Positions 7,890 through 59,407 of a stretch of DNA of 64,000 bases are shown piece by piece (position 1 is the stretch's first letter; every line of letters starts with the position of its first letter). Origin of the DNA: Pseudothioclava nitratireducens. GTDB taxonomy: Bacteria; Pseudomonadota; Alphaproteobacteria; Rhodobacterales; Rhodobacteraceae. Both the position numbers and the translations under genes were made by a program. The notes under the pieces were generated by a model. That model worked only from the letters and a program-made list of their open reading frames with translations. It was not told the DNA's origin and did no database searches. The stretch lies in assembly GCF_029210495.1 (NCBI RefSeq), contig NZ_JARGDK010000001.1:156010-220009 (forward strand). Direction: 5' to 3'.

Positions 7890-9287
7890 ATGAGCATTAC
7901 GTTTCTTCTCAATGGAGAAACCCGGACCGTGACGGTCCAAGACCCAACGCAATCGGTGCTGGACTGGCTGCGCGCCGAGGGGTTCACCGGCACCAAAGAG
8001 GGCTGCAACGAAGGCGATTGCGGGGCCTGCACGGTGATGCTGAGCGATGCACAAGGGGCGCGCGCGCTCAATGCCTGCCTGCTGATGTTGCCGCAACTTC
8101 ACGGCAAGGCACTGCGCACCATCGAGGGCATTGCCGGGCCCGGCGGCGTACTCCACCCGGTGCAAGACGCGATGATCTCGCATCACGGCTCGCAATGCGG
8201 TTTCTGCACGCCGGGCTTTGTGGTCTCGATGGCGACGGCGCATCTGAACGGGCGCCGCGATCACGACGACCTGCTGGCGGGCAATCTCTGTCGCTGCACC
8301 GGCTACGCCCCGATCATCCGCGCTGCCGAAGCCGTCGCAGACCGGCCCATCCCCGACTGGATGCACGACCCGGCTCTCACGCTGCCCGAAATATCCTCGG
8401 GGGGTGAAGGCGCAGCCGAGGGGGGCGGACAGCCCCCCTTCCTGCCCACCAGCGCCGATGCGCTGGCCGACTGGTATCTCGCCCATCCCGACGCCACGCT
8501 GATCGCGGGCGCGACCGATGTGGGGCTGTGGGTCACCAAGCAATTACGCGCGTTGCCAGAGGTCGCCTTCCTTGGCGGTTGCACCGATCTTGCAACGATC
8601 ACGCCCGAGGTCGGGGGGCACCGGATCGGAGCCTGCGTGACCATCGCGACGCTGCGCGACTGGGCGCAGGACCGCCACCCCGCGCTGGCCGAATTGCTCC
8701 GCCGCTTTGCCTCCGAACAGGTGCGCCAGGCCGCAACGCTGGGCGGCAACATCGCAAATGGCTCGCCCATCGGCGACACGCCTCCTGCACTCATCGCGAT
8801 GGGCGCGACGCTCCGCCTGCGCCGGGGCGACGCCCGCCGCGAGTTACCCCTGGAGACCTATTTCCTCGATTACGGCCGGCAGGATCGCCAGCCCGGCGAG
8901 TTTGTCGAGAGCGTCTGGATACCTGACAGCGCGCCCGATCTTGCCTGTTATAAACTGTCGAAAAGGTTCGATCAGGACATTTCCGCGGTCTGCGGTTGCT
9001 TCAATCTGACCGTTGAAGGTTCGAAAATTGGAAGCGCCCGCATCGCTTTTGGCGGCATGGCGGGCGTGCCGAAACGGGCCTCTGCCTTCGAGGCGGCCCT
9101 GATTGGGCAACCGCTGACTGAGGCCGTCATCGAGGCTGCGCTGCCGGCGCTGACACAGGATTTCACGCCGCTCAGCGACATGCGCGCGAGCGCCGCCTAC
9201 CGGCTTGAGGCGGCGCAGGGGATGGCGCGGCGCTACATCCGCGCCCGTCTCGGCCAGCCGGTCTCGGTCCTGGAGGTGCAGCCATGA
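7890..9287 (+). CDS. xdhA: Xanthine dehydrogenase small subunit (2Fe-2S/FAD)
   Basis: Oxidises hypoxanthine and xanthine to urate together with XdhB. The 465 residues carry two [2Fe-2S] clusters: C39/C44/C47 with C63, then C103/C106 and C134/C136 (QCGFC and LCRCTG). An FAD-binding domain ([15 protein letters not shown]) starts near residue 204. The linker between them, about residues 163-185, is GC-rich and glycine-rich ([15 protein letters not shown]) and is encoded by a copy of the intergenic repeat seen near 56.5 kb, translated in frame. First gene of a seven-gene run; the stop overlaps xdhB by four bases. Confidence 0.95.
8376..8450 (+). repeat. Intergenic-type repeat embedded in frame inside xdhA
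   Basis: The stretch CTGCCCGAAATATCCTCGG, then GGGGTGAAGG, a short GC hairpin and GGGGGGCGGACAGCCCCCC, closely follows the copy at 56503-56575 (CTGCCGGAAATATCCTCGG, GGGGTGAATGG, GGGGGCGGATAGCCCCC). Here it lies wholly within the xdhA frame, in the linker between the iron-sulfur and FAD domains, where extra residues would be tolerated. Confidence 0.7.
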
Positions 9288-26013: not shown

Positions 26014-26045
26014 ATGCCTCCACCCGCGTCTGGCCAGCGCCGGAC

Positions 26046-26119
26046 GCTCCGCGGGGGATATTTTGAGCAGACTGAGAGAGGCCCCGTGTCAGTCTGCCAT
26101 AAATATCCCCGCCGGAGGC
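26046..26119. repeat. Head-to-head pair of intergenic repeats, long hairpin
   Basis: Left arm 26046-26075 (GCTCCGCGGGGGATATTTT then GAGCAGACTGA). Right arm 26089-26119 (TCAGTCTGCCATAAATAT then CCCCGCCGGAGGC). They are near-perfect reverse complements separated by a 13-base spacer. The pair fills the gap between the convergent transglycosylase and esterase genes and may act as a bidirectional terminator or mRNA 3' stabiliser. The same arms recur at 32687-32755. Confidence 0.8.
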
Positions 26120-26140
26120 AAATACCGCCAGCGTGACGCG

Positions 26141-27506: not shown

Positions 27507-30019
27507 GCGCGAGCCTGCGCATTGCCGCCCGCGAGTTACGTGGCGGGCTTCGCGGATTCCGCGTTTTCCTGTTATGCCTGATGCTGGGCGTTGCCGCGAT
27601 TTCCGCCGTGGGCCTCGTCCGCGAGGCGATCCGGGGCGGCCTGTCGGATCAGGGCGCCGCGCTCTTGGGAGGGGACGCGCAATTTGAATTCACCTACCGC
27701 CGCCCCGCGCCCGAGGAACGTGCGTGGATCGACGCGCGGGCGGTCGCAAGCTCCGAGGTGGTGGAGTTCCGCTCGATGCTGCAAACCGGGGCGGGCGAAG
27801 CGCTGGAAACCGCGCTGACGCAGGTCAAGGCCGTCGATAACGCGCATCCTCTGATCGGAACGCTTCAGCTCGACCCCCCGCTGCCGGTCTCGACGCTGTT
27901 CGCGCAGACCGATGGCCCGTCCGCCATTTTCCTGGACCAGATCCTTGCCGACAGGCTGGGCCTTGCGCCGGGCGATCCGGTGCGCCTTGGCGGGATCACG
28001 TTCACCATGGCCGCGCGCATTCAGCGCGAGCCGGATTCGACCGGGGCCGGTACCGGCCTTGGTCCGCGCTCGATCGTGGCACTCCCCGCCATCGAGGACA
28101 GCGCCTTGCTGGCACCGGGCGCACTCTATGAGACCGAGCTGCGTGTGACCCTGCCGCCCGATACCGATCTCGATGCGCTACGCGCCGAGGCGCAGGCGCA
28201 TTTCGACGGCGCAGGGATGCGCTGGCAGGATCGCCGCCGCGCCGCGCCGGGGGCGGATCGTTTCGTGACGCGGCTCGGCTCGTTTCTGGTGCTTGTCGGG
28301 CTGGCCGGGCTGGCCGTCGGCGGGGTCGGGATTTCCGCGACCGTCAGCGCATGGCTCGAACGCAAGGCCGAGACCATCGCGACGCTGCGCGCCATCGGCG
28401 CGACCGGGGGCATGATACGGGCGATCTTCCTGTGGCAACTCCTTGCGCTCAGCGTCACCGGCATCGCGGCGGGGCTCGTGCTGGGAAGCGCGATGGTGCT
28501 GTTTGCGTCAGGCCTCATCGAACGACTGATGCCGATCCCGGTCGATGTGGGGCTAAGCGCGCGCCCGCTGATCGAGGCCGGGCTCTACGGCGCGCTTGTG
28601 GCGGCGATCTTTGCGCTCTGGCCGCTGTCGCGGATGCTGGGCCAACGCGCGGCGCGGCTCTATCGGCGCAATCGTACAGGGCGGTTCTCGCTGCCAGCGT
28701 TCGGCGCATTGGCCCTGATCGCACTGCTGATCGCCGCTCTGGTGGCGCTCGCCGTGTGGTTCTCGGGAATGGTAATGTTGACGCTCGGCACTCTGGGCGG
28801 GATCGCGCTGGCGCTTGGCCTGCTCGCAATTGCCGGTTGGCTCGTGCGCTATGCGGCCCGCGCGCTCTCGCATCTCGCCCGCGGGCGTCCGGCGCTCCGC
28901 GCGGCGCTTGCGTCGATTGGCGGGCCGCGCTCCGAAGCGGTGCCGGTGATCCTGTCGCTCGGGCTTGGGCTTTCGGTGCTGGCCGCTGTCGGTCAGGTCG
29001 ATGCGGGTCTGCGCGGCGCAATCGCGCAAGACCTCCCCGAGGTGGCACCCGCCTATTTCGTGCTCGACATTCAGAAGGATCAGCTCGACCCGTTCCTGAC
29101 CCGGCTCGATGCCATCGGCGGGGTCGAAAAGGTCGAAACCGTGCCAATGCTGCGCGGCATCATCACCGAGATCAATGGCCAGAACGCGCGCGAGGTTGCG
29201 GGCGAACACTGGGTGCTGCGCGGCGACCGGGGCGTAACCTATGCCGAGACGCCGCGCGAGGCACTGACCGCTGGCGACTGGTGGCCCGCTGACTACGCCG
29301 GGCCGCCGCTAGCGAGTTTCGCCGCGCAAGAGGCCGAGGAACTGGGGCTGAAGCTGGGCGATATGATCACGGTGAACATCCTCGGACGCGATATCGAGGC
29401 AAGGATCACCTCGTTCCGCGACGTCGATTTCTCGACCGCCGGAATCGGCTTCGTGCTGACGCTGAACCCCGCTGCGCTCGCCGCAGCGCCCCATACCCAT
29501 CTGGCGACGATCTATGCGCCCCCTGAGGCCGAAGCCCCGATCCTGCGCGACTTGGCCGGGGCGTTTCCGAATATCACCGCGATCCGCGTGCGCGATGCGA
29601 TCGACCGCGTGACCGAGGCGCTTGGCGCGATCGCGCGGGCGACCTCGCTCGCAGCAGGGGTGACGCTGCTCACCGGCTTTGTCGTGCTGATCGGCGCGGC
29701 GGCTTCGGGCGAGGCGGCCCGCGCGTGGGAAGCCGCGCTTCTCAAGACGGTTGGCGCGACGCGGCGCACCGTGCTTGCCTCCTTCGCGCTGCGTTCGGCG
29801 CTCTTGGGGGCGGCGGCGGGGCTGGTCGCGATCCTGTTCGGTGCGCTGGCGGGCTGGGCCGTGCTGGAGCTGGTGATGGAGGCAACCTTCCGCTTCGCCC
29901 CGATCCCGGCGCTCGCTATCGTCAGTGGCGGCGTTCTGGCGACCCTGCTTGCGGGGTTGGTCTTTGCGCTGCGCCCGCTCTCTGCGCGCCCGGCCCGCGT
30001 GCTGCGGGCGAGCGAGTGA
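27503..30019 (+). CDS. ybbP: ABC transporter permease with two FtsX domains, YbbP type
   Basis: 838 residues. The N-terminal helix (FRVFLLCLMLGVAAISAVG) is followed by a large periplasmic domain of about 200 residues, then FtsX-type helices (VGLAGLAVGGVGISATVSAW, with the ERKAETIATLRAIGAT coupling motif). A second block of helices, a second periplasmic domain, and a C-terminal FtsX domain with KTVGATRRTVLASFAL complete it. This tandem arrangement is characteristic of YbbP. It is translationally coupled to ybbA. The stop lies four bases before an intergenic repeat that separates it from a convergent MFS gene. Confidence 0.88.
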   Translation: MSASLRIAARELRGGLRGFRVFLLCLMLGVAAISAVGLVREAIRGGLSDQGAALLGGDAQFEFTYRRPAPEERAWIDARAVASSEVVEFRSMLQTGAGEALETALTQVKAVDNAHPLIGTLQLDPPLPVSTLFAQTDGPSAIFLDQILADRLGLAPGDPVRLGGITFTMAARIQREPDSTGAGTGLGPRSIVALPAIEDSALLAPGALYETELRVTLPPDTDLDALRAEAQAHFDGAGMRWQDRRRAAPGADRFVTRLGSFLVLVGLAGLAVGGVGISATVSAWLERKAETIATLRAIGATGGMIRAIFLWQLLALSVTGIAAGLVLGSAMVLFASGLIERLMPIPVDVGLSARPLIEAGLYGALVAAIFALWPLSRMLGQRAARLYRRNRTGRFSLPAFGALALIALLIAALVALAVWFSGMVMLTLGTLGGIALALGLLAIAGWLVRYAARALSHLARGRPALRAALASIGGPRSEAVPVILSLGLGLSVLAAVGQVDAGLRGAIAQDLPEVAPAYFVLDIQKDQLDPFLTRLDAIGGVEKVETVPMLRGIITEINGQNAREVAGEHWVLRGDRGVTYAETPREALTAGDWWPADYAGPPLASFAAQEAEELGLKLGDMITVNILGRDIEARITSFRDVDFSTAGIGFVLTLNPAALAAAPHTHLATIYAPPEAEAPILRDLAGAFPNITAIRVRDAIDRVTEALGAIARATSLAAGVTLLTGFVVLIGAAASGEAARAWEAALLKTVGATRRTVLASFALRSALLGAAAGLVAILFGALAGWAVLELVMEATFRFAPIPALAIVSGGVLATLLAGLVFALRPLSARPARVLRASE

Positions 30020-30022
30020 TCT

Positions 30023-30056
30023 GCCTCCGGCGGGGATATTTTGGGCAGCGTGAAAG
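30023..30056 (+). repeat. Single copy of the intergenic repeat
   Basis: GCCTCCGGCGGGGATATTTT followed by GGGCAGCGTGAAAG fills nearly all of the 40-base gap between the convergent ybbP and MFS genes. Unlike the copies at 26.05 and 32.7 kb it has no inverted partner. Confidence 0.75.
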
Positions 30057-30059
30057 GGG

Positions 30060-32651: not shown

Positions 32652-32686
32652 GGACCTTCCCTTCGTGGAGGCGGCCACCGCCGGAT

Positions 32687-32755
32687 GCCTCCGGCGGGGA
32701 TATTTTCAGCAGCGTGACGAAGCATTCAGTCTGCCACAAATATCCCCCGCGGAGC
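32687..32755. repeat. Head-to-head pair of intergenic repeats, long hairpin
   Basis: Left arm 32687-32717 (GCCTCCGGCGGGGATATTTT then CAGCAGCGTGA). Right arm 32726-32755 (TCAGTCTGCCACAAATATC then CCCCGCGGAGC). They are inverted around an eight-base spacer. The pair occupies the gap between the 3' end of hemC and the 5' end of the oxidase gene, both on the minus strand, so it could end or stabilise the hemC transcript. Confidence 0.8.
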
Positions 32756-32792
32756 GTCCCGCGGAAGTCAGGAGCGCACGGGCCAGATGGGC

Positions 32793-34933: not shown

Positions 34934-36904
34934 TTACTTCGCGCGGCCCGGTTTCTTGCCCGGCTTGGCGGGGCCGCGCTCATATTTGGCCTTGGGCTTC
35001 GCGCCGGGCTTCCCCGAAGGCTTGCCGTCGGCTTTGTCCTTCTTCTCCCAAGGTTTCGCCCCTGCCTTGCTGGCAGGTTTGTCCTTTTTTTCCAACGGCT
35101 TGCCGGCGGGCTTGTCTTTCTTTTCCCACGGCTTGCCGGCGGGTTTATCCTTTTTCTCCCAAGGCTTCCCGCCTGCGCCCGCCTCGGCATCACGCGGCGA
35201 GGCGCCCTTGCGGTGCGGCTTCTTGAACGGCTTGCCGCCCGATTTGAAATCGCCCCGGTCACCCTTGTTCTTGTCCCAGCGCGCCGGACGCGGCGGCGGA
35301 CGGTCGAGCCCCTCGGGGGCTTCGTCCAGCGTCACGACCTTGCATTTATCCTCAAGCTGCATCGCGGGGCCAAGCGCCTTGAGGAAGCGCGGTGCGGCAT
35401 CGGCGTGGATCTGAACGAAGCTATGGTCCTGCATGATCCGAATCTGGCCGATATCGCGGCGAGTGAGGTCGCCCGCGCGGCACAGCATCGGCAAGAGCCA
35501 TTTCGGATCGACATGGGCGTCATGGCCCATCGTCAGACGCAGCCATTGCGCGTTACCGAACTCGGCGCGCTCACGCGGTTTGATCCCGTCGACAGTCACC
35601 GGGACGATATCTTCGGGGGCCGAACGCGAGGCCATAAAGTGACGCGCAACGGCAGCCGCCAGAGCCCGCGGCTCAAACCGTTCGAGCAGTGCGGCGACGG
35701 TCGCCTCTTCGTCTTCGGTCACCGGCTGTTGCAGTTCGGGCTCTTCGAGGATGCGCTGGCGGTCCTTGGCGATGATTTCCTCGGCGCTCGGGGCGGCGGC
35801 CCAGGTCGGCGCGATATTGGCGGTCTTGAATACCCGATCGGCTTTGGCGCGCAGGTTATGCGGCACGATGACAGCCGAGACCCCCTTCGAGCCCGCGCGA
35901 CCCGTCCGGCCCGAGCGGTGCAGCAGCGCTTCCTTGTTGATCGGCAGGTCGGCATGAACGACCAGTTCCAGACCCGGCAGGTCGATGCCCCGCGCGGCCA
36001 CATCGGTCGCAATACAGACCCGCGCCCGCCCATCACGCATCATCTGAAGCGCGCGTGAGCGTTCGTCCTGGCTGAGTTCACCGGACAGCGCCACCACCGA
36101 GAACCCCCGGTTGAGGAAACGCGTCGTGAGATGCGTCACCGTCGCGCGGGTACCGCAGAACACGATGGCAGTTTTCGCCTCGTAGAAGCGGAGCACGTTG
36201 ACGATGGCGTTCTCGCGGTCGGATTTGTCGACGAGAAGCGCGCGATACTCGATATCGGCGTGCTGCTCGCGTTTGGCCATGGTCGAAACCCGCTGCGCGT
36301 CCTTCTGGAACGTGCGTGCAAGGCGTTCGATCTCGGGCGAGACGGTTGCCGAGAACATCAGCGTCCGGCGCTCTTCATTCGCCGATTCAAGGATGAATTC
36401 GAGGTCTTCGCGGAAGCCGAGATCGAGCATTTCGTCGGCCTCGTCGAGCACCGCCACGCGCAGTTCCGAGAGATCCAGCGCCCCGCGACGGATGTGGTCG
36501 CAAATCCGGCCCGGCGTGCCGACGACGATATGCGCGCCGCGCTCTAGCGTGCGGCGCTCGAACCGCGCATCCATGCCCCCGACCGCACCCGCGATCACGA
36601 GTCCGGCACCCCCGTAAAGCCATTCGAATTCACGGCGCACCTGAAGCGCGAGTTCGCGCGTCGGCGCGATCACCAACGCACGCGGCACATCGGCATAAAG
36701 CGCGGGACCCTCGCCCAGCAACTCCGCCGCCATAGCCAGACCGAAGGCCACCGTCTTCCCCGACCCGGTCTGCGCCGACACCAACAAATCCTGCCCGGCC
36801 AGATCGGGGGCAATGACGGCTTCCTGGACTGGCGTGAGGGCGGCATAGCCCTTGGCGGCCAGCGCCTCGGAGAGCGCGGGGTGAAGATCGGGAAGGTTGG
36901 ACAT
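34934..36904 (-). CDS. DEAD-box ATP-dependent RNA helicase with lysine-rich repeat tail
   Basis: 656 residues. Helicase motifs run in order: AQTGSGKT (44-51), PTRELA (81-86), TPGR (130-133), DEAD (154-157), SAT (185-187), then the second RecA domain with IATDVAARGIDLPG and HRSGRTGRAG. Residues about 410-545 form a DbpA/CsdA-type RNA-binding region (VPVTVDGIKPRERAEFG). The last 110 residues are lysine/proline-rich and contain four near-copies of KPWEKKDKPAG, probably a disordered RNA-binding tail. Likely roles are ribosome assembly and cold adaptation, by analogy with DeaD/CsdA. It is monocistronic. Confidence 0.9.
   Translation of the reverse strand: MSNLPDLHPALSEALAAKGYAALTPVQEAVIAPDLAGQDLLVSAQTGSGKTVAFGLAMAAELLGEGPALYADVPRALVIAPTRELALQVRREFEWLYGGAGLVIAGAVGGMDARFERRTLERGAHIVVGTPGRICDHIRRGALDLSELRVAVLDEADEMLDLGFREDLEFILESANEERRTLMFSATVSPEIERLARTFQKDAQRVSTMAKREQHADIEYRALLVDKSDRENAIVNVLRFYEAKTAIVFCGTRATVTHLTTRFLNRGFSVVALSGELSQDERSRALQMMRDGRARVCIATDVAARGIDLPGLELVVHADLPINKEALLHRSGRTGRAGSKGVSAVIVPHNLRAKADRVFKTANIAPTWAAAPSAEEIIAKDRQRILEEPELQQPVTEDEEATVAALLERFEPRALAAAVARHFMASRSAPEDIVPVTVDGIKPRERAEFGNAQWLRLTMGHDAHVDPKWLLPMLCRAGDLTRRDIGQIRIMQDHSFVQIHADAAPRFLKALGPAMQLEDKCKVVTLDEAPEGLDRPPPRPARWDKNKGDRGDFKSGGKPFKKPHRKGASPRDAEAGAGGKPWEKKDKPAGKPWEKKDKPAGKPLEKKDKPASKAGAKPWEKKDKADGKPSGKPGAKPKAKYERGPAKPGKKPGRAK
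35035..35175 (-). repeat. Tandem in-frame repeats encoding KPWEKKDKPAG units
   Basis: Four copies of a unit of 33 bases or slightly longer encode K-P-(W/L)-E-K-K-D-K-(P/A)-(A/D) in the tail of the DEAD-box helicase. The second to third copies are nearly identical at DNA level, pointing to slippage or recombination. Copy number probably varies between strains. Confidence 0.8.
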
Positions 36905-54941: not shown

Positions 54942-56297
54942 ATGGAACAGGAATCGCAACTGACCCGGCTCGGTCTCTTCGACGCGCGGGTTCCCCGCTA
55001 TACCAGCTACCCCACCGCCCCGCATTTCTCGGAGTCGGTGGGCAGCGACATCTTCACCCAATGGGTCGAGGCGATCCCCGAAGGGGCCGCTATCTCCTTG
55101 TATATGCACGTTCCTTTCTGCCGAAGGCTGTGCTGGTTCTGTGCCTGCCGGACGCAAGGCACGCAAAGCGACGACCCGGTGCGCGCCTATTCCGAGGTGC
55201 TGCTGGCGGAGTTGAAAATGCTCAGGGAGCGGCTGGCGCCCGGCGTCAAATTGTCCAGATTGCACTGGGGTGGCGGCACGCCGACGCTGATGCCCGCTGA
55301 TATGATGCGCCGAGTCGCGGAAGCTGTATTCGAAGCCGTGCCGATGGGCGAAGGGGCCGAATTCTCCGTGGAAATCGACCCTAACGAGATCGACGACGCC
55401 CGCATGGACGCGCTGGCGCAGTCCGGGATGAACCGCGCCTCGATCGGGGTGCAGGATTTCGACCCCGAGATTCAAAAGGTCATCGGGCGGGATCAGAGCT
55501 ACGAAATCACCAAGCGTGCGGTCGAGATGATCCGGGAACGCGGCGTGGCCTCGCTCAACGCCGATATTCTCTACGGCCTGCCCTACCAGGACAATCGCCG
55601 GATTTCCGAATCCGTGCAGAAGCTTCTCTCGCTCGGGCCGGACCGGGTGGCGCTTTATGGCTATGCCCATGTGCCGTGGATGGCGCGGCGGCAGACCATG
55701 ATCCCCTCCGATCACCTGCCCACCCCGCAAGAGCGCCTCGCTCTGTTTGAAACCGCGCGCCAGCTTTTCGTGGCCGATGGGTATGACGAGATTGGCATCG
55801 ACCATTTCGCTCTGCCCAGCGACGGGCTCTCCAAGGCGCTGAAGGCCGGCAAGCTGCGCCGCAACTTCCAGGGCTATACGGACGATCTCGCAGAGGCGCT
55901 GGTCGGCATGGGCGCGAGTTCAATCTCGCGCTTCCCGCAAGGCTACGCGCAGAACGCATCGGCCACCTCGAAGCACACCGGCGCGATCCGTGAGGGCAAG
56001 TTCTCGACCGCGCGCGGGCATGTGTTTTCTGCGGATGACATGATGCGCGCGCGGCTGATCGAGGCGCTGATGTGCGACTTCAAGGTCTCGACGGATGAGC
56101 TGGTCCGCGACTACGGTGCAAAACCGACCGAGTTGGCCACCATGTTCGCCGAGTGCGCCGCGAAGTTCGAGGACATGGTCCGCGTGACGACCTCGGGTCT
56201 GGAAATCCCCGAGAAGGGCCGCCCGCTGACCCGGATGATCGCCCGGCATTTCGATGCTTATGACCTGTCCAAGGCCGGGCATAGCTCCGCGATCTGA
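54942..56297 (+). CDS. hemN: Oxygen-independent coproporphyrinogen III dehydrogenase
   Basis: A radical-SAM enzyme that makes protoporphyrinogen IX without oxygen. The 451 residues contain the HemN cluster motif CRRLCWFCAC (C-x3-C-x2-C-x-C) near residue 62, LHWGGGTPTLM, and a HemN C-terminal domain. The N-terminus RYTSYPTAPHFSE is typical, so the ATG at 54942 is secure. No Shine-Dalgarno sequence precedes it. An FNR box is centred about 42 bases upstream and TATTGA at 54929-54934 could be the -10, so the message may start at or next to the ATG. Confidence 0.96.
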   Translation: MEQESQLTRLGLFDARVPRYTSYPTAPHFSESVGSDIFTQWVEAIPEGAAISLYMHVPFCRRLCWFCACRTQGTQSDDPVRAYSEVLLAELKMLRERLAPGVKLSRLHWGGGTPTLMPADMMRRVAEAVFEAVPMGEGAEFSVEIDPNEIDDARMDALAQSGMNRASIGVQDFDPEIQKVIGRDQSYEITKRAVEMIRERGVASLNADILYGLPYQDNRRISESVQKLLSLGPDRVALYGYAHVPWMARRQTMIPSDHLPTPQERLALFETARQLFVADGYDEIGIDHFALPSDGLSKALKAGKLRRNFQGYTDDLAEALVGMGASSISRFPQGYAQNASATSKHTGAIREGKFSTARGHVFSADDMMRARLIEALMCDFKVSTDELVRDYGAKPTELATMFAECAAKFEDMVRVTTSGLEIPEKGRPLTRMIARHFDAYDLSKAGHSSAI

Positions 56298-56330
56298 GCC
56301 CCTGCTGACCGCCTGTGCTTCGTCCCCGTC

Positions 56331-56367
56331 GGATGCCTCCGGCGGGGATATTTTCTGGCAGAATGAG
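56331..56367 (+). repeat. Intergenic repeat copy downstream of hemN
   Basis: GGATGCCTCCGGCGGGGATA followed by TTTTCTGGCAGAATGAGG, 34 bases after hemN. It shares 20 consecutive bases with the copies at 30.02 and 32.69 kb. Confidence 0.8.
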
Positions 56368-56502
56368 GGGCCGGAACTTTTTCTTAAGCTTCTTCGGCTT
56401 TGCTGACCGGGCGGTACAGGCGGGGACGCCGATGACCGCGCAGAGTGACGATGCGCCCCCCTTGGTGAGCCGTGTGCAACTTCGGGGGGCGCTGGCGCTC
56501 TG
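56368..56502. other. Unassigned spacer between two repeat copies
   Basis: 135 bases bounded by oppositely oriented repeat copies. Short frames run through it but none has coding-like composition, a ribosome site or a recognisable product. It may be DNA trapped between the repeats, or just the natural hemN 3' region. Confidence 0.3.
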
Positions 56503-56575
56503 TCAGTCTGCCGGAAATATCCTCGGGGGTGAATGGCCGCAGGCCAGAGGGGGCGGATAGCCCCCTGCCCGGCTC
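56503..56575 (-). repeat. Inverted intergenic repeat copy with GC hairpin
   Basis: TCAGTCTGCCGGAAATATCC, then TCGGGGGTGAATGGCCGCAG, then a hairpin GGGGGCGGATAGCCCCC. It lies opposite in orientation to the copy at 56331-56367 and reaches the stop of the glycosyltransferase gene. The same sequence type is found inside xdhA. Confidence 0.75.
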
Positions 56576-57803
56576 AGCGTTCGGTATGCCCCGCACGTTC
56601 GACGAATTCGACCAGTTTCGGCAGGCATTTCCCGTGCAGATCGTATGTCTCGACAATCGTGCGACGGGCCGCCGCGCGCTGTGCCTCATAGGCCGCAGGA
56701 TTGGCCAGAACATCGGTGAGCGCCGCGCTCCAGCCCTCGATGTCGAAGAAATCCACTAGCTTGCCGTTGCGCCCATCCTTGATGACCTCGCGCACCGGAT
56801 CGGTATCGGACCCGACCACCATGCAACCCGCCGCCATCGACTCCATCAGCGACCAGCTCAGCACGAACGGGTAGGTCAGATAGGCGTGGCAGCGCGAGAC
56901 CTGAAGCATCGAGAGATAGGTCGGATAGGCCACCCGCCCGAGGAAATGCACGCGCGACAGGTCCAGCCTGTCGCCGACCTCGTCCAGCATCTTCTGCTTC
57001 CAGCTCGCGGCATCCTTGGGGGCGGCGCCATAGCTTTGCCCCTCCTCACCGACAATGGCGACATGGGCCTTGGGGCGCGCCTCGAGAACCGCCGGAAGCG
57101 CGCGCATGAAGCTATGGAAGCCGCGATAGGGTTCGAGCGAGCGATTGACGAAGGTCAGCAACTCGTCGCCCGGGCGGAAGCTGAGCGTCGTTTCGGGGAT
57201 CTCGAAAAAGGCGTTTGGATCGGGGCGGACCCGGCCGGTGTCGATGCCGTCATGGCAGATCGTGATCTTGTCGCGGAATTCCGGCTGGAAAGTGGCTGCC
57301 TGAAACGCCGTCGGCGCGAGGGCGGCATCGGCCTGCACCATGGACTGCACCAGATGCGCAGAGCGCGCCACCGTCATGATCCGCGGCTCAAGGCCCTCCC
57401 GGCGGAACTCGGCGTCGAAATCGGTGTCGAGCCCCTCGCTGCGATACATCAGCTCGGCATAAACGAGGAGCTTCGCACGCGGCCAGACTTCCTTGAGGAA
57501 CAGCGTCTCACCCCAGCCGGAATGGCCGAAAATCACATCCGGGTGGTAGTCGTGCTGATCGCGCAACTGCCGCGCGGCGAAAGCCGCCTTCAGGCCGCGT
57601 TCGGCGCAATCGGCATACATGCGGGTCAGGTTCGAGGACAGCGTGACCTCCGAGGGCTTGCGGTATTTCACCACCTTCACTGGCGAGGGGCGCGTGTTCG
57701 TCTCGGATGTCAGGGCAAGAACGTGATGGCCGCGATTGACGAGAGCGGGGGCAAGATGCGGGAACTGACCAGGGAAATTCTGATGAACGAACAGGATCTT
57801 CAT
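56574..57803 (-). CDS. Glycosyltransferase family 1/4 type
   Basis: 409 residues with a two-domain GT-B fold. The N-terminal domain starts MKILFVHQNFPGQFPHLAPA. The C-terminal donor domain shows FVNRSLEPYRGFHSFMRAL and the family motif PFVLSWSLMESMAAGCMVVG (E-x7-E-like region). An NDP-sugar is transferred to an unknown acceptor. The start overlaps the stop of the yejF-like gene by four bases (ATGA), so it is translationally coupled to a peptide transporter. No other polysaccharide genes are nearby, and the link is unexplained. Confidence 0.85.
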   Translation of the reverse strand: MKILFVHQNFPGQFPHLAPALVNRGHHVLALTSETNTRPSPVKVVKYRKPSEVTLSSNLTRMYADCAERGLKAAFAARQLRDQHDYHPDVIFGHSGWGETLFLKEVWPRAKLLVYAELMYRSEGLDTDFDAEFRREGLEPRIMTVARSAHLVQSMVQADAALAPTAFQAATFQPEFRDKITICHDGIDTGRVRPDPNAFFEIPETTLSFRPGDELLTFVNRSLEPYRGFHSFMRALPAVLEARPKAHVAIVGEEGQSYGAAPKDAASWKQKMLDEVGDRLDLSRVHFLGRVAYPTYLSMLQVSRCHAYLTYPFVLSWSLMESMAAGCMVVGSDTDPVREVIKDGRNGKLVDFFDIEGWSAALTDVLANPAAYEAQRAAARRTIVETYDLHGKCLPKLVEFVERAGHTER

Positions 57804-59407
57804 GCGGCTCCGCCAAAACTGTCTTCACCGAGCGCCGCCGTCAGCAACGCGCGGGTATAATCGGTCTGCGGCGCGGCAAAGATCTGCTCGGCAGGGCCCG
57901 CCTCGACCACATCTCCACGCTTCATCACCATGATCTTGTGCGAGAGCGCGCGTACCACGCGCAGGTCGTGGCTGATGAACAGATAGGCCAGCCCGTAGCG
58001 TCGTTGCAGGGCGCGCAGAAGCTCTACGATCTGCACCTGCACCGTCATGTCGAGTGCCGAGGTCGGCTCATCGAGCACCACCACTTTCGGCCGCAGGATC
58101 ATCGCCCGCGCAATCGCGATCCGCTGACGCTGACCGCCCGAGAATTCATGCGGGTAGCGGTGCATGGAGGCCGGGTCGAGCCCGACTTCTTCCATGATTT
58201 CCTCGACCATCTCGCGCCGATTGCGCCCCGGCTCGACACCGTGGACGGTCAGACCCTCGGCGATGATCTGCTCGATTGTCATGCGCGGGCTGAGTGAGCC
58301 GAACGGGTCCTGAAACACGATCTGCATGTCCCGGCGCAGCTTGCGCAACTGGCCCGAGGACCAGCGCGAGATATCCGCGCCATCATAGAGGATCGGCCCC
58401 TCGGACTGGATCAGCCGCATGATCGCAAGCGCGAGCGTGGTCTTGCCCGAACCGCTTTCGCCGACGATCCCCAGCGTCTCGCCAGCGCGCAGGCTGAGCG
58501 ACGCGTCGTTGACCGCCTTCACATGGCCGACGACACGGCGCAAAAGTCCGCGCTGAACCGGGAACCAGATCTTCAGATGCTCGGTGCGCACCAGTTCGGG
58601 CGCGTCCGCGACGACCGGATCGGCGCGCCCGGTGGGCTCTGCCGCAAGCAACTTACGCGTATAGGGATGCTGCGGGTTGGCGAAAATCTCTTCGGCCGGC
58701 CCCTGCTCTACGATCTCACCATTTTGCATCACGCAGACCCGATCCGCGATCCGCCGCACGATGCCCAGATCATGGCTGATGAACAGAAGGCTCATGCCCA
58801 GATCGCGCTTCAGATCGGCCAGCAGGTCGAGGATCTGCGCCTGAATGGTCACGTCGAGCGCGGTGGTCGGCTCATCCGCAATCAGCAGTTCCGGCCCGTT
58901 CGCAAGCGCCATCGCGATCATCACCCGCTGACGTTGGCCGCCCGAAAGCTGGTGCGGGTAATCCGCCAGACGGCTTTCGGGGTTCTGGATGCCGACTTGG
59001 GTCAGAAGTTCGATGATGCGCGCGCGGGCCTCGTCGCCTTGCAGGCCCTGGTGGATGCCAAGGCTTTCGCCGATCTGCCGCTCGATCGTGTGGAGCGGGT
59101 TCAGCGAGGTCATCGGCTCTTGGAAGATAAAGCTGATATCGTTGCCGCGCACGTCGCGCAGCGCGGCCTCGGGGGCGCCGACCATCTCGCGGCCTTCGTA
59201 GCGGATAGAGCCTTCGATCTGCGCGTTCGAGCCGAGAAGTGCGACCGTGGACAGCGCCGTCACCGACTTGCCCGAGCCGGACTCACCCACCAGCGCCACG
59301 GTCTCGCCTTTGCCGACCGAGAAGGACACGCCCTTCACCGCCGGGATCAGCTTGCCGTCCTGCGAAAAGGTCACGCGCAGGTTCTCGACCTCAAGCACCG
59401 CGCTCAT
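57800..59407 (-). CDS. yejF: Oligopeptide/microcin C-type ABC transporter, fused double ATPase
   Basis: 535 residues with two complete nucleotide-binding domains in tandem. Domain 1 has Walker A GESGSGKS and signature LSGGQRQRVMIAMAL, domain 2 has GESGSGKT and FSGGQRQRIAIARAM; each has its own Walker B (LLIADEPTTALD, VVVLDEPTSALD). This is the YejF/OppDF-fusion layout. The frame is open far upstream, but the ATG at 59407 starts a normal ATPase (SAVLEVENLRVTF) and overlaps the permease stop (ATGA). It powers the YejBE channel; the ligands are probably oligopeptides. Confidence 0.93.
   Translation of the reverse strand: MSAVLEVENLRVTFSQDGKLIPAVKGVSFSVGKGETVALVGESGSGKSVTALSTVALLGSNAQIEGSIRYEGREMVGAPEAALRDVRGNDISFIFQEPMTSLNPLHTIERQIGESLGIHQGLQGDEARARIIELLTQVGIQNPESRLADYPHQLSGGQRQRVMIAMALANGPELLIADEPTTALDVTIQAQILDLLADLKRDLGMSLLFISHDLGIVRRIADRVCVMQNGEIVEQGPAEEIFANPQHPYTRKLLAAEPTGRADPVVADAPELVRTEHLKIWFPVQRGLLRRVVGHVKAVNDASLSLRAGETLGIVGESGSGKTTLALAIMRLIQSEGPILYDGADISRWSSGQLRKLRRDMQIVFQDPFGSLSPRMTIEQIIAEGLTVHGVEPGRNRREMVEEIMEEVGLDPASMHRYPHEFSGGQRQRIAIARAMILRPKVVVLDEPTSALDMTVQVQIVELLRALQRRYGLAYLFISHDLRVVRALSHKIMVMKRGDVVEAGPAEQIFAAPQTDYTRALLTAALGEDSFGGAA

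What the first reader, a model, noticed from the sequence alone, without database searches (positions are those of the whole stretch)
8376..8450. Intergenic repeat translated in frame within xdhA
About 75 bases inside xdhA follow the same order of motifs as the intergenic copy at 56503-56575, including the C-rich hairpin. The insertion adds a Gly/Glu/Pro-rich stretch exactly in the linker between the iron-sulfur and FAD domains. Protein-coding capture of a palindromic repeat is known for Rickettsia elements but rarely noted in this family.
Basis: partly seen in the sequence, partly recalled or inferred. Interest (0 to 1): 0.62.

Follow-up and report, generated by a model that had tools for sequence, protein, structure and literature searches.

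The report
Gene-end repeat translated inside xanthine dehydrogenase
A hairpin-forming repeat that normally sits just behind genes in one bacterial family has also ended up inside a metabolic enzyme, where it is read as a floppy connector between two domains; many relatives have it at the same spot, and it seems to keep changing along with the repeats between genes.

Summary
Window 8374-8447, inside xdhA, is a full copy of a family-specific palindromic repeat; a strict whole-element pattern has 80 places in this genome, xdhA included, reversed control 0. Of 86 distinct own-genome copies examined, xdhA is the only one internal to a coding sequence; nearly all others lie at gene 3' ends. It encodes about residues 162-186, between the Fer2_2 and FAD_binding_5 domains, and holds the only AlphaFold2 segment of 3 or more residues below pLDDT 50 (167-179). 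It is not limited to this lineage: 48 of 394 family genomes (48 of 393 genera) have its core in the same hinge, always in one orientation (reverse 0 of 394), in all three reading frames, mixed among relatives lacking it. Outside the family: 1 chance-like match in 380 genomes. The xdhA variant tracks the same genome's variants (0 of 20,000 permutations). Best reading: one or a few old captures, then loss, decay and replacement by other genomic copies. A role in xdhA is neither shown nor excluded. Coding palindromic repeats are known; the shared hinge and apparent exchange are new here.

The parts
7890..9287 (+). xdhA: fused FeS + FAD subunit of xanthine dehydrogenase, 465 aa
   Evidence: ORF; Pfam Fer2 7-54, Fer2_2 77-146, FAD_binding_5 185-346, CO_deh_flav_C 353-451; R. 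capsulatus XDH chain 2w3r_A, E 5.9e-223, residues 1-465; Foldseek 1jro_A TM 0.91 by query length
8374..8447 (+). captured copy of the palindromic gene-end repeat, translated as [25 protein letters not shown] (about residues 162-186)
   Evidence: 28 genome matches, itself included; scores 36 bits with a matrix built from 29 noncoding copies, highest of the shuffled hinges 20.3
8374..8396 (+). 5' arm and core of the repeat (CTCTCACGCTGCCCGAAATATCC)
8399..8404 (+). left G-run (6 G), equal in length to both arms of hairpin 2
   Evidence: sequence; equal lengths in 61 of 103 parsed xdhA copies, 18.9 expected by shuffling
8405..8419 (+). hairpin 1 region (TGAAGGCGCAGCCGA)
   Evidence: sequence; hp1 stems in 72 xdhA copies with a middle of 10 nt or more: mean 5.1 pairs, shuffled 2.7
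8420..8438 (+). hairpin 2 (GGGGGG CGGACAG CCCCCC)
   Evidence: 8374-8447 folds to -41.9 kcal/mol as + strand RNA, z -3.5
26086..26120 (+). class B copy of the same family (same core, other hairpin CCCCGCCGGAGG); partner copy facing it at 26044-26075 (-)
30019..30059 (-). class B copy
32686..32718 (-). class B copy, facing another at 32723-32760 (+)

Best explanation
SHOWN: a roughly 65-75-nt palindromic element, found here essentially only in this family, lies in this genome nearly always directly behind stop codons, and one copy lies inside xdhA. There it is in frame and encodes a Gly/Pro-rich, predicted disordered insert in the hinge between the FeS and FAD domains. The same hinge carries the element, in the same orientation, in many other genera. 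INFERRED: it entered this hinge once or a few times early in the family, in the orientation less often seen behind tandem genes in this genome. It survived because the hinge tolerates length and sequence. Since then it has been lost or has decayed in many lineages and, where kept, has repeatedly been overwritten by other copies of the same genome (ectopic gene conversion or re-insertion at the same place). It behaves as a largely neutral passenger of XdhA while staying part of the genome's noncoding repeat population. In its usual place the element probably acts as a transcript-end stem-loop (terminator or mRNA 3'-end structure); that is inferred from position only.
For: Repeat population. Gene ends: of 86 distinct own-genome copies, 82 are not within a called gene; flanks are convergent 36, (-,-) 30, (+,+) 14, divergent 2. 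The 4 flagged 'coding' reduce on reading to xdhA as the only internal one; in one more (L303) a gene ends inside the copy. Same place, orientation and family spread; of 29 scored loci, 27 have the element and 2 only the core. Distance from CRCTGYAP-I to the core is 76 nt in 45 of 101 copies, and types A, B and C share it. Exchange: type A (AAATATCCTC + 7-nt loop) and type C (AAATATCCC + 5-nt loop) differ by 1 nt and 2 nt at two linked sites, each alone a frameshift, yet both occur at the same spacing in open frames. The xdhA type follows own-genome frequencies (0 of 20,000 permutations; majority type in 17 of 30, namely 8/20 A, 4/4 B, 5/6 C). Congeners carry different versions, e.g. Thioclava L063 against L070/L119. 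Tolerated insert: AlphaFold2 segment below 50 at 167-179; R. capsulatus chain A has 462 residues as sequence and 450 in the structure library, so 12 seem unresolved, which ones was not shown. Nucleic-acid-like evolution: third codon positions are more alike in the insert than in the rest of the gene in 18 of 22 pairs, second positions less alike in 16 of 22.
Against: The XdhA tree is poorly resolved, so gains and losses cannot be separated. Type A is over-represented in xdhA (20 seen, 8.5 expected). In 12 of 20 type-A genomes it is not the majority type, and in G396 and G312 the genome holds one type-A place only; that looks like inheritance or transfer rather than exchange. Element length is not fixed modulo 3: among frame-1 xdhA copies 48, 23 and 22 fall in the three classes, among noncoding own copies 35, 15 and 9, so a free swap would often break the frame unless the flanks compensate. 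Coding copies keep hp1 less well than noncoding ones (stem of 5 or more in 51% against 81%), which points to decay. The permutation test is not corrected for relatedness. One search is biased towards conservation, because both members of a pair had to match the motif. No transposase of the Y1 kind in this genome, no conversion tract seen, no expression data.
Confidence: 0.57

Rival explanations
1. Many independent insertions: the element is mobile and enters this hinge again and again at a preferred target and orientation, then decays.
For: All three reading frames occur with intact downstream frames (113 frame 1, 7 frame 2, 5 frame 0; at least 4 frame changes on the tree). At least 32 presence/absence changes on the tree, against 52-65 in 30 shuffles of labels. 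Hinge lengths with the element removed resemble those of element-free relatives (median 91 and 102 nt). A wide range of decay.
Against: One orientation only (48 to 0) and a strongly modal position (45 of 101 at 76 nt) are unexpected for free insertion. Frame classes cluster on the tree (4 changes, 10-12 when shuffled). A Y1/RAYT transposase was found in 1 of 60 genomes.
Confidence: 0.3
2. The captured copy is kept for a function in xdhA: as mRNA it forms a strong hairpin at the domain border and slows ribosomes so that the FeS domain can fold, or it regulates the operon.
For: Coding copies keep pairing above shuffles (hp1 stem 5.1 against 2.7; run lengths equal in 61 of 103). The window copy folds with z -3.5. 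Third codon positions are conserved. The site lies between two domains.
Against: Most family genomes with XdhA lack the strict motif (48 of 394 have it; 368 of 394 have XdhA). Many copies are decayed, and hp1 is kept less well than in noncoding copies. No other examined copy of this genome is internal to a gene. The noncoding copy at 56500 folds no better than shuffles (z -0.4 and -0.7). Recent replacement by noncoding copies would keep the hairpins without selection.
Confidence: 0.12
3. Chance: an ordinary Gly/Pro-rich linker that resembles the repeat.
For: The hinge is variable in length and composition among XdhA rows.
Against: E-values to 2.7e-14 against own-genome copies; reversed-pattern controls 0; the matrix from noncoding copies gives the window hinge 36 bits, best shuffled hinge 20.3; variants match the same genome.
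Confidence: 0.01
4. Fusion relic: the element was the 3' end of a separate FeS-subunit gene and was trapped when FeS and FAD genes fused.
For: The element's usual home is behind stop codons, and the site is the border of the two domains.
Against: XdhA of other families with both domains in one chain lack the element (L275, and L276 apart from an isolated octamer elsewhere in the hinge), and element-free fused XdhA is common within the family (72 of 135 rows).
Confidence: 0.04

Closest known systems
Rickettsia palindromic elements (RPE) (review PMC10969869, passages read; the original papers were not seen)
   Same: Palindromic repeats found between and inside genes and translated in frame with the host protein.
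   Different: As the review puts it, RPEs are about 150 bp, 44 integrations in R. conorii, nearly half in ORFs of unrelated genes. Here the element is about 70 nt, one of 86 examined copies is internal to a gene, that site is shared by many genera of a family, and the coding variant tracks the noncoding population.
Enterobacterial RU-1/2/3 repeat units (PMC2759123, abstract and section list seen)
   Same: Small repeated intergenic sequences carrying open frames, found within annotated gene loci.
   Different: 103-168 bp, MITE-like, different hosts; a list of separate genes rather than one recurring hinge.
REP / GTAG and CGTC palindromic repeats (PMC3733652, passages read)
   Same: Short stem-loop repeats, downstream of coding regions, some inside genes.
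   Different: GTAG occurs in only 3 of 86 copies; no RAYT (Y1_Tnp) in this genome, 1 of 60 overall; longer, with two hairpins and a conserved AAATAYYC core. CGTC tag not tested.
Rhodobacter capsulatus xanthine dehydrogenase XdhA (1jro, 2w3r)
   Same: Same protein. Its hinge AFTLAQLSSGVRGQTAPAF corresponds to the translated repeat; strain DSM 1710 (L041) has a clear DNA copy, 30 bits.
   Different: Shorter version without hairpin 1.

Membership tests
Protein-coding palindromic repeat (kind exemplified by RPE) | palindromic repeat with noncoding relatives in the same genome | tested here: met
Protein-coding palindromic repeat (kind exemplified by RPE) | in-frame in an otherwise intact protein | tested here: met
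   (from sequence; no protein data)
Rickettsia palindromic element proper | about 150 bp, spread through many unrelated genes | tested here: not met
   about 70 nt; 1 of 86 examined copies internal to a gene
REP (GTAG) with RAYT | GTAG tag | tested here: not met
   3 of 86 copies contain GTAG
REP (GTAG) with RAYT | associated Y1 tyrosine transposase | tested here: not met
   PF01797: 0 in own genome, 1 of 60 genomes
REP (CGTC) | CGTC tag | not tested
   none
Intrinsic transcription terminator | position at gene 3' ends | tested here: met
   36 convergent, 44 tandem, 2 divergent of 82, genes by codon score
Intrinsic transcription terminator | stem directly followed by a T-run | tested here: not met
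   the scan of 55000-58000 finds none at 56500-56573; one class-B-like site at 56322-56349; other copies not scanned
Intrinsic transcription terminator | transcripts end there | not testable with these tools
   needs 3'-end RNA sequencing
Rfam RNA family | match above gathering score | tested here: not met
   window and five own-genome loci

The most novel reading that the evidence does not exclude
A stretch of an enzyme that evolves in concert with noncoding DNA: the XdhA hinge of a whole bacterial family is a standing exchange site for a gene-end palindromic repeat, and the peptide is rewritten whenever the captured copy is replaced by another genomic copy that happens to keep the frame.
Probability: 0.35. 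Interest if true: 0.75.

Novelty: new variant of a known kind. Interest (0 to 1): 0.6.

Why it matters
It shows how a noncoding stem-loop becomes protein and may remain coupled to its noncoding relatives over a family's history. Because the host is an enzyme with a solved structure from R. capsulatus, and strains are easy to compare, the questions (mobile or converted? neutral or a folding aid?) can be tested directly. It also offers an explanation for length and sequence variation in a hinge that would otherwise look like ordinary linker drift.

Tried and rejected
Lineage-restricted insertion: rejected. Fusion relic: disfavoured on few outgroup rows. RAYT/REP: not met. Rfam: none. Plasmid collection: 4 records with weak matches; no feature is annotated under 3 of them and the fourth record has no annotation. 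Letter search of papers for three hairpin sequences: 1 unrelated paper. Literature searches for a described Rhodobacteraceae repeat and for terminators: nothing in the listed titles and abstract openings describes it (one search listed 15 of 99 papers); passages of PMC5089854 concern another terminator. The claim that this repeat or its XdhA capture is unreported rests only on these searches of open-licence papers.

My gene scoring flagged 4 coding copies. L197 is an antisense read of one gene joined to the start of the next, and L313 has internal stops; both were rejected on reading. L303 is a gene whose last codons and stop lie in a class-B copy. 12 of the 93 places were not fetched, and 13 places were added, so 'one internal copy' holds for the 86 distinct copies examined. 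In one search two rows labelled EXACT frame 0 are not real frame-0 copies: L276 is an isolated octamer in an outgroup, and L045 is a mis-set offset. The frame counts leave out L276 and use a corrected core position. One search left out L170; rows with an unclear state (9, 12) were not counted. Of 48 genomes positive, 30 loci were fetched there and 29 scored: 27 element, 2 core only. The 45 xdhA-positive genomes chosen for include core variants other than A, B and C; only 30 entered the test.

Full report
WHAT IS THERE. Window 8374-8447 lies inside an intact xdhA (7890-9287, 465 aa). It carries, in order, a 5' arm, AAATATCCTC, a run of 6 G, a short palindrome (hp1) and a hairpin GGGGGG-CGGACAG-CCCCCC. 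In the whole genome the stretch has 28 BLAST matches, itself included. The core motif has 93 places against 0 for its reversed control, and a strict whole-element pattern has 80 places, xdhA included, control 0. The window holds further copies, including class B copies with the same core but another hairpin.

WHERE THE REPEAT NORMALLY LIVES. I examined 86 distinct copies of this genome; 12 of the 93 places were not fetched. By a codon-usage gene score, 82 lie outside called genes: 36 between convergent genes, 30 behind a gene on the opposite strand in tandem, 14 behind a gene on the same strand, and 2 between divergent genes. The near end of the right-hand minus-strand gene lies 29-99 nt from the core start in 64 of 66 cases; 24 of 50 left-hand plus-strand genes stop 7-17 nt before the core. 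This is the pattern of a gene-end element. It lacks the simple stem-plus-T-run of a textbook terminator at 56500, and the noncoding copy there folds no better than shuffles on either strand (z -0.4, -0.7), so a terminator role is inferred from position only. Of four copies flagged coding, only xdhA is a true internal one. Rfam shows no such family.

WHERE IT SITS IN THE PROTEIN. Fer2_2 ends at residue 146 and FAD_binding_5 begins at 185; the repeat encodes about 162-186. AlphaFold2 (40 sequences, mean pLDDT 84.8) has one segment of 3 or more residues below 50: 167-179. The model matches R. capsulatus XDH 1jro_A with TM 0.91. That chain has 462 residues in sequence and 450 in the structure library, so 12 seem unresolved; which ones was not shown here.

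RELATIVES. Among the 30 XdhA loci aligned, six from other genera clearly show the same repeat in the same hinge (L010, L014, L018, L020, L026, L037), while the other species of the genus (G001) and many others have a hinge without it. A pattern of conserved XdhA codons, a gap and AAATAYYC matched 48 of 394 family genomes, reversed control 0; of 29 scored loci among them 27 have the element and 2 only its core. 368 of 394 genomes have XdhA at E<=1e-100. The repeat in reverse orientation at the same place: 0 of 394. Rhodobacter capsulatus DSM 1710 is among them (L041; hinge LFTLAEISSGVRGQTAPAV). Outside the family the whole-element pattern matched 1 of 380 genomes, an A/T-rich match that looks like chance; in the family 4 of 5 drawn.

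A scoring matrix built from 29 noncoding copies of this genome gives 253 XdhA hinges scores from -21 to 39; with the core and hairpin rule, 166 were called with the element, 72 without, 15 unclear. On XdhA trees built without the hinge, presence needs at least 26 changes (134 rows) or 32 (larger set; 52-65 with shuffled labels). The trees are weakly resolved, so these are rough. Frames: 113 copies read xEIxxGG-like, 7 read xKNIPG-like, 5 read xKYPGG-like; the frame classes cluster (4 changes, 10-12 shuffled). Two rows have a broken frame at the insert (L121 Phaeobacter sp. J2-8, L143 Alloyangia mangrovi); slippage, sequencing error or real loss cannot be told apart.

OLD CAPTURE OR REPEATED CAPTURE? 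For one or few old captures: one orientation, and a modal position (76 nt after CRCTGYAP-I in 45 of 101) shared by types A (17 of 53), B (6 of 9) and C (7 of 15). For repeated events: three frames, scattered presence, and variant types that follow the genome. Types are two-site haplotypes: at least 49 of 53 type-A copies have a 7-nt loop, while 9 of 9 B and 15 of 15 C copies have a 5-nt loop. Going from A to C changes -1 nt and -2 nt at sites a few tens of nt apart (G-run to loop 11-51 nt, median 26); each alone breaks the frame, both together keep it. A one-step replacement is the simplest route. In 30 genomes with counts the xdhA type fits own-genome frequencies better than any of 20,000 permutations (not corrected for relatedness). 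Against exchange as the whole story: type A is in excess in xdhA (20 seen, 8.5 expected). In G396 and G312 the genome holds a single type-A place, and G396 has none of types B or C, so some copies are inherited or came with a transferred xdhA. Element length is not constant modulo 3 (frame-1 coding copies 48/23/22 in the three classes; noncoding own copies 35/15/9), so many possible swaps would not keep the frame by themselves.

STRUCTURE IN CODING COPIES. Left G-run, hairpin G-run and hairpin C-run have equal length in 61 of 103 parsed xdhA copies (of 140; 18.9 expected) and in 48 of 59 parsed noncoding copies (of 82; 21.5 expected). hp1 is palindromic in coding copies (mean stem 5.1, shuffled 2.7), with 59 distinct sequences among 72; stems of 5 or more are rarer than in noncoding copies (51% against 81%), as expected if coding copies decay. 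Close relatives show paired changes (Ruegeria L014/L060 against L087) and swapped versions (Thioclava L063 against L070/L119). In 22 non-overlapping pairs, third codon positions are more alike in the insert than elsewhere in 18, second positions less alike in 16 (pooled 0.78 against 0.65, and 0.85 against 0.91). Both members had to match the motif, which inflates conservation. This fits nucleic-acid-level upkeep, by exchange or by selection; the data do not separate these.

MECHANISM. No Y1/RAYT transposase in this genome and 1 of 60 overall, so canonical REP mobility is not supported. Ectopic recombination between copies is my preferred means of exchange (inference). The missing reverse orientation could reflect descent from few captures, or selection against a terminator-like strand inside the operon; in this genome tandem copies are 30 in that sense and 14 in the xdhA sense.

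KNOWN KIND. Translated palindromic repeats are known: RPEs in Rickettsia (PMC10969869, passages), RU elements in enterobacteria (PMC2759123, abstract and section list) and intragenic REPs (PMC3733652, passages). New here is the family-wide shared hinge in one enzyme with apparent co-evolution with the noncoding population. I found no paper describing the repeat or this capture in the listings (open-licence PMC only, some listings capped).

Noticed in passing
L303 (G000:C11:112964-114464), copy near locus position 740: A ThiF/MoeB-like gene (name by eye) ends inside a class-B copy: its last residues GASGGDI and the stop codon TGA are supplied by the repeat.
   Followed up: partly
L121 and L143, xdhA hinge: In Phaeobacter sp. 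J2-8 and Alloyangia mangrovi the two halves of xdhA are out of frame across the repeat; a changed G-run length is a possible cause.
   Followed up: partly
L087 and L042, xdhA hinge: The translated insert is partly duplicated in tandem (repeated RGAEPPS / AEPP units) in a Ruegeria and a Tritonibacter.
   Followed up: no
L069 and L104, xdhA hinge: Palleronia rufa and a relative carry a further, longer extra stretch (WGGRDPVSATGADT-like) after the repeat.
   Followed up: no
26044-26120 and 32686-32760: Pairs of class B copies face each other a few bases to a few dozen bases apart; flanking genes not checked.
   Followed up: no
35009-35176: Four imperfect direct repeats (57-nt unit, spacing 45/33/33).
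   Followed up: no
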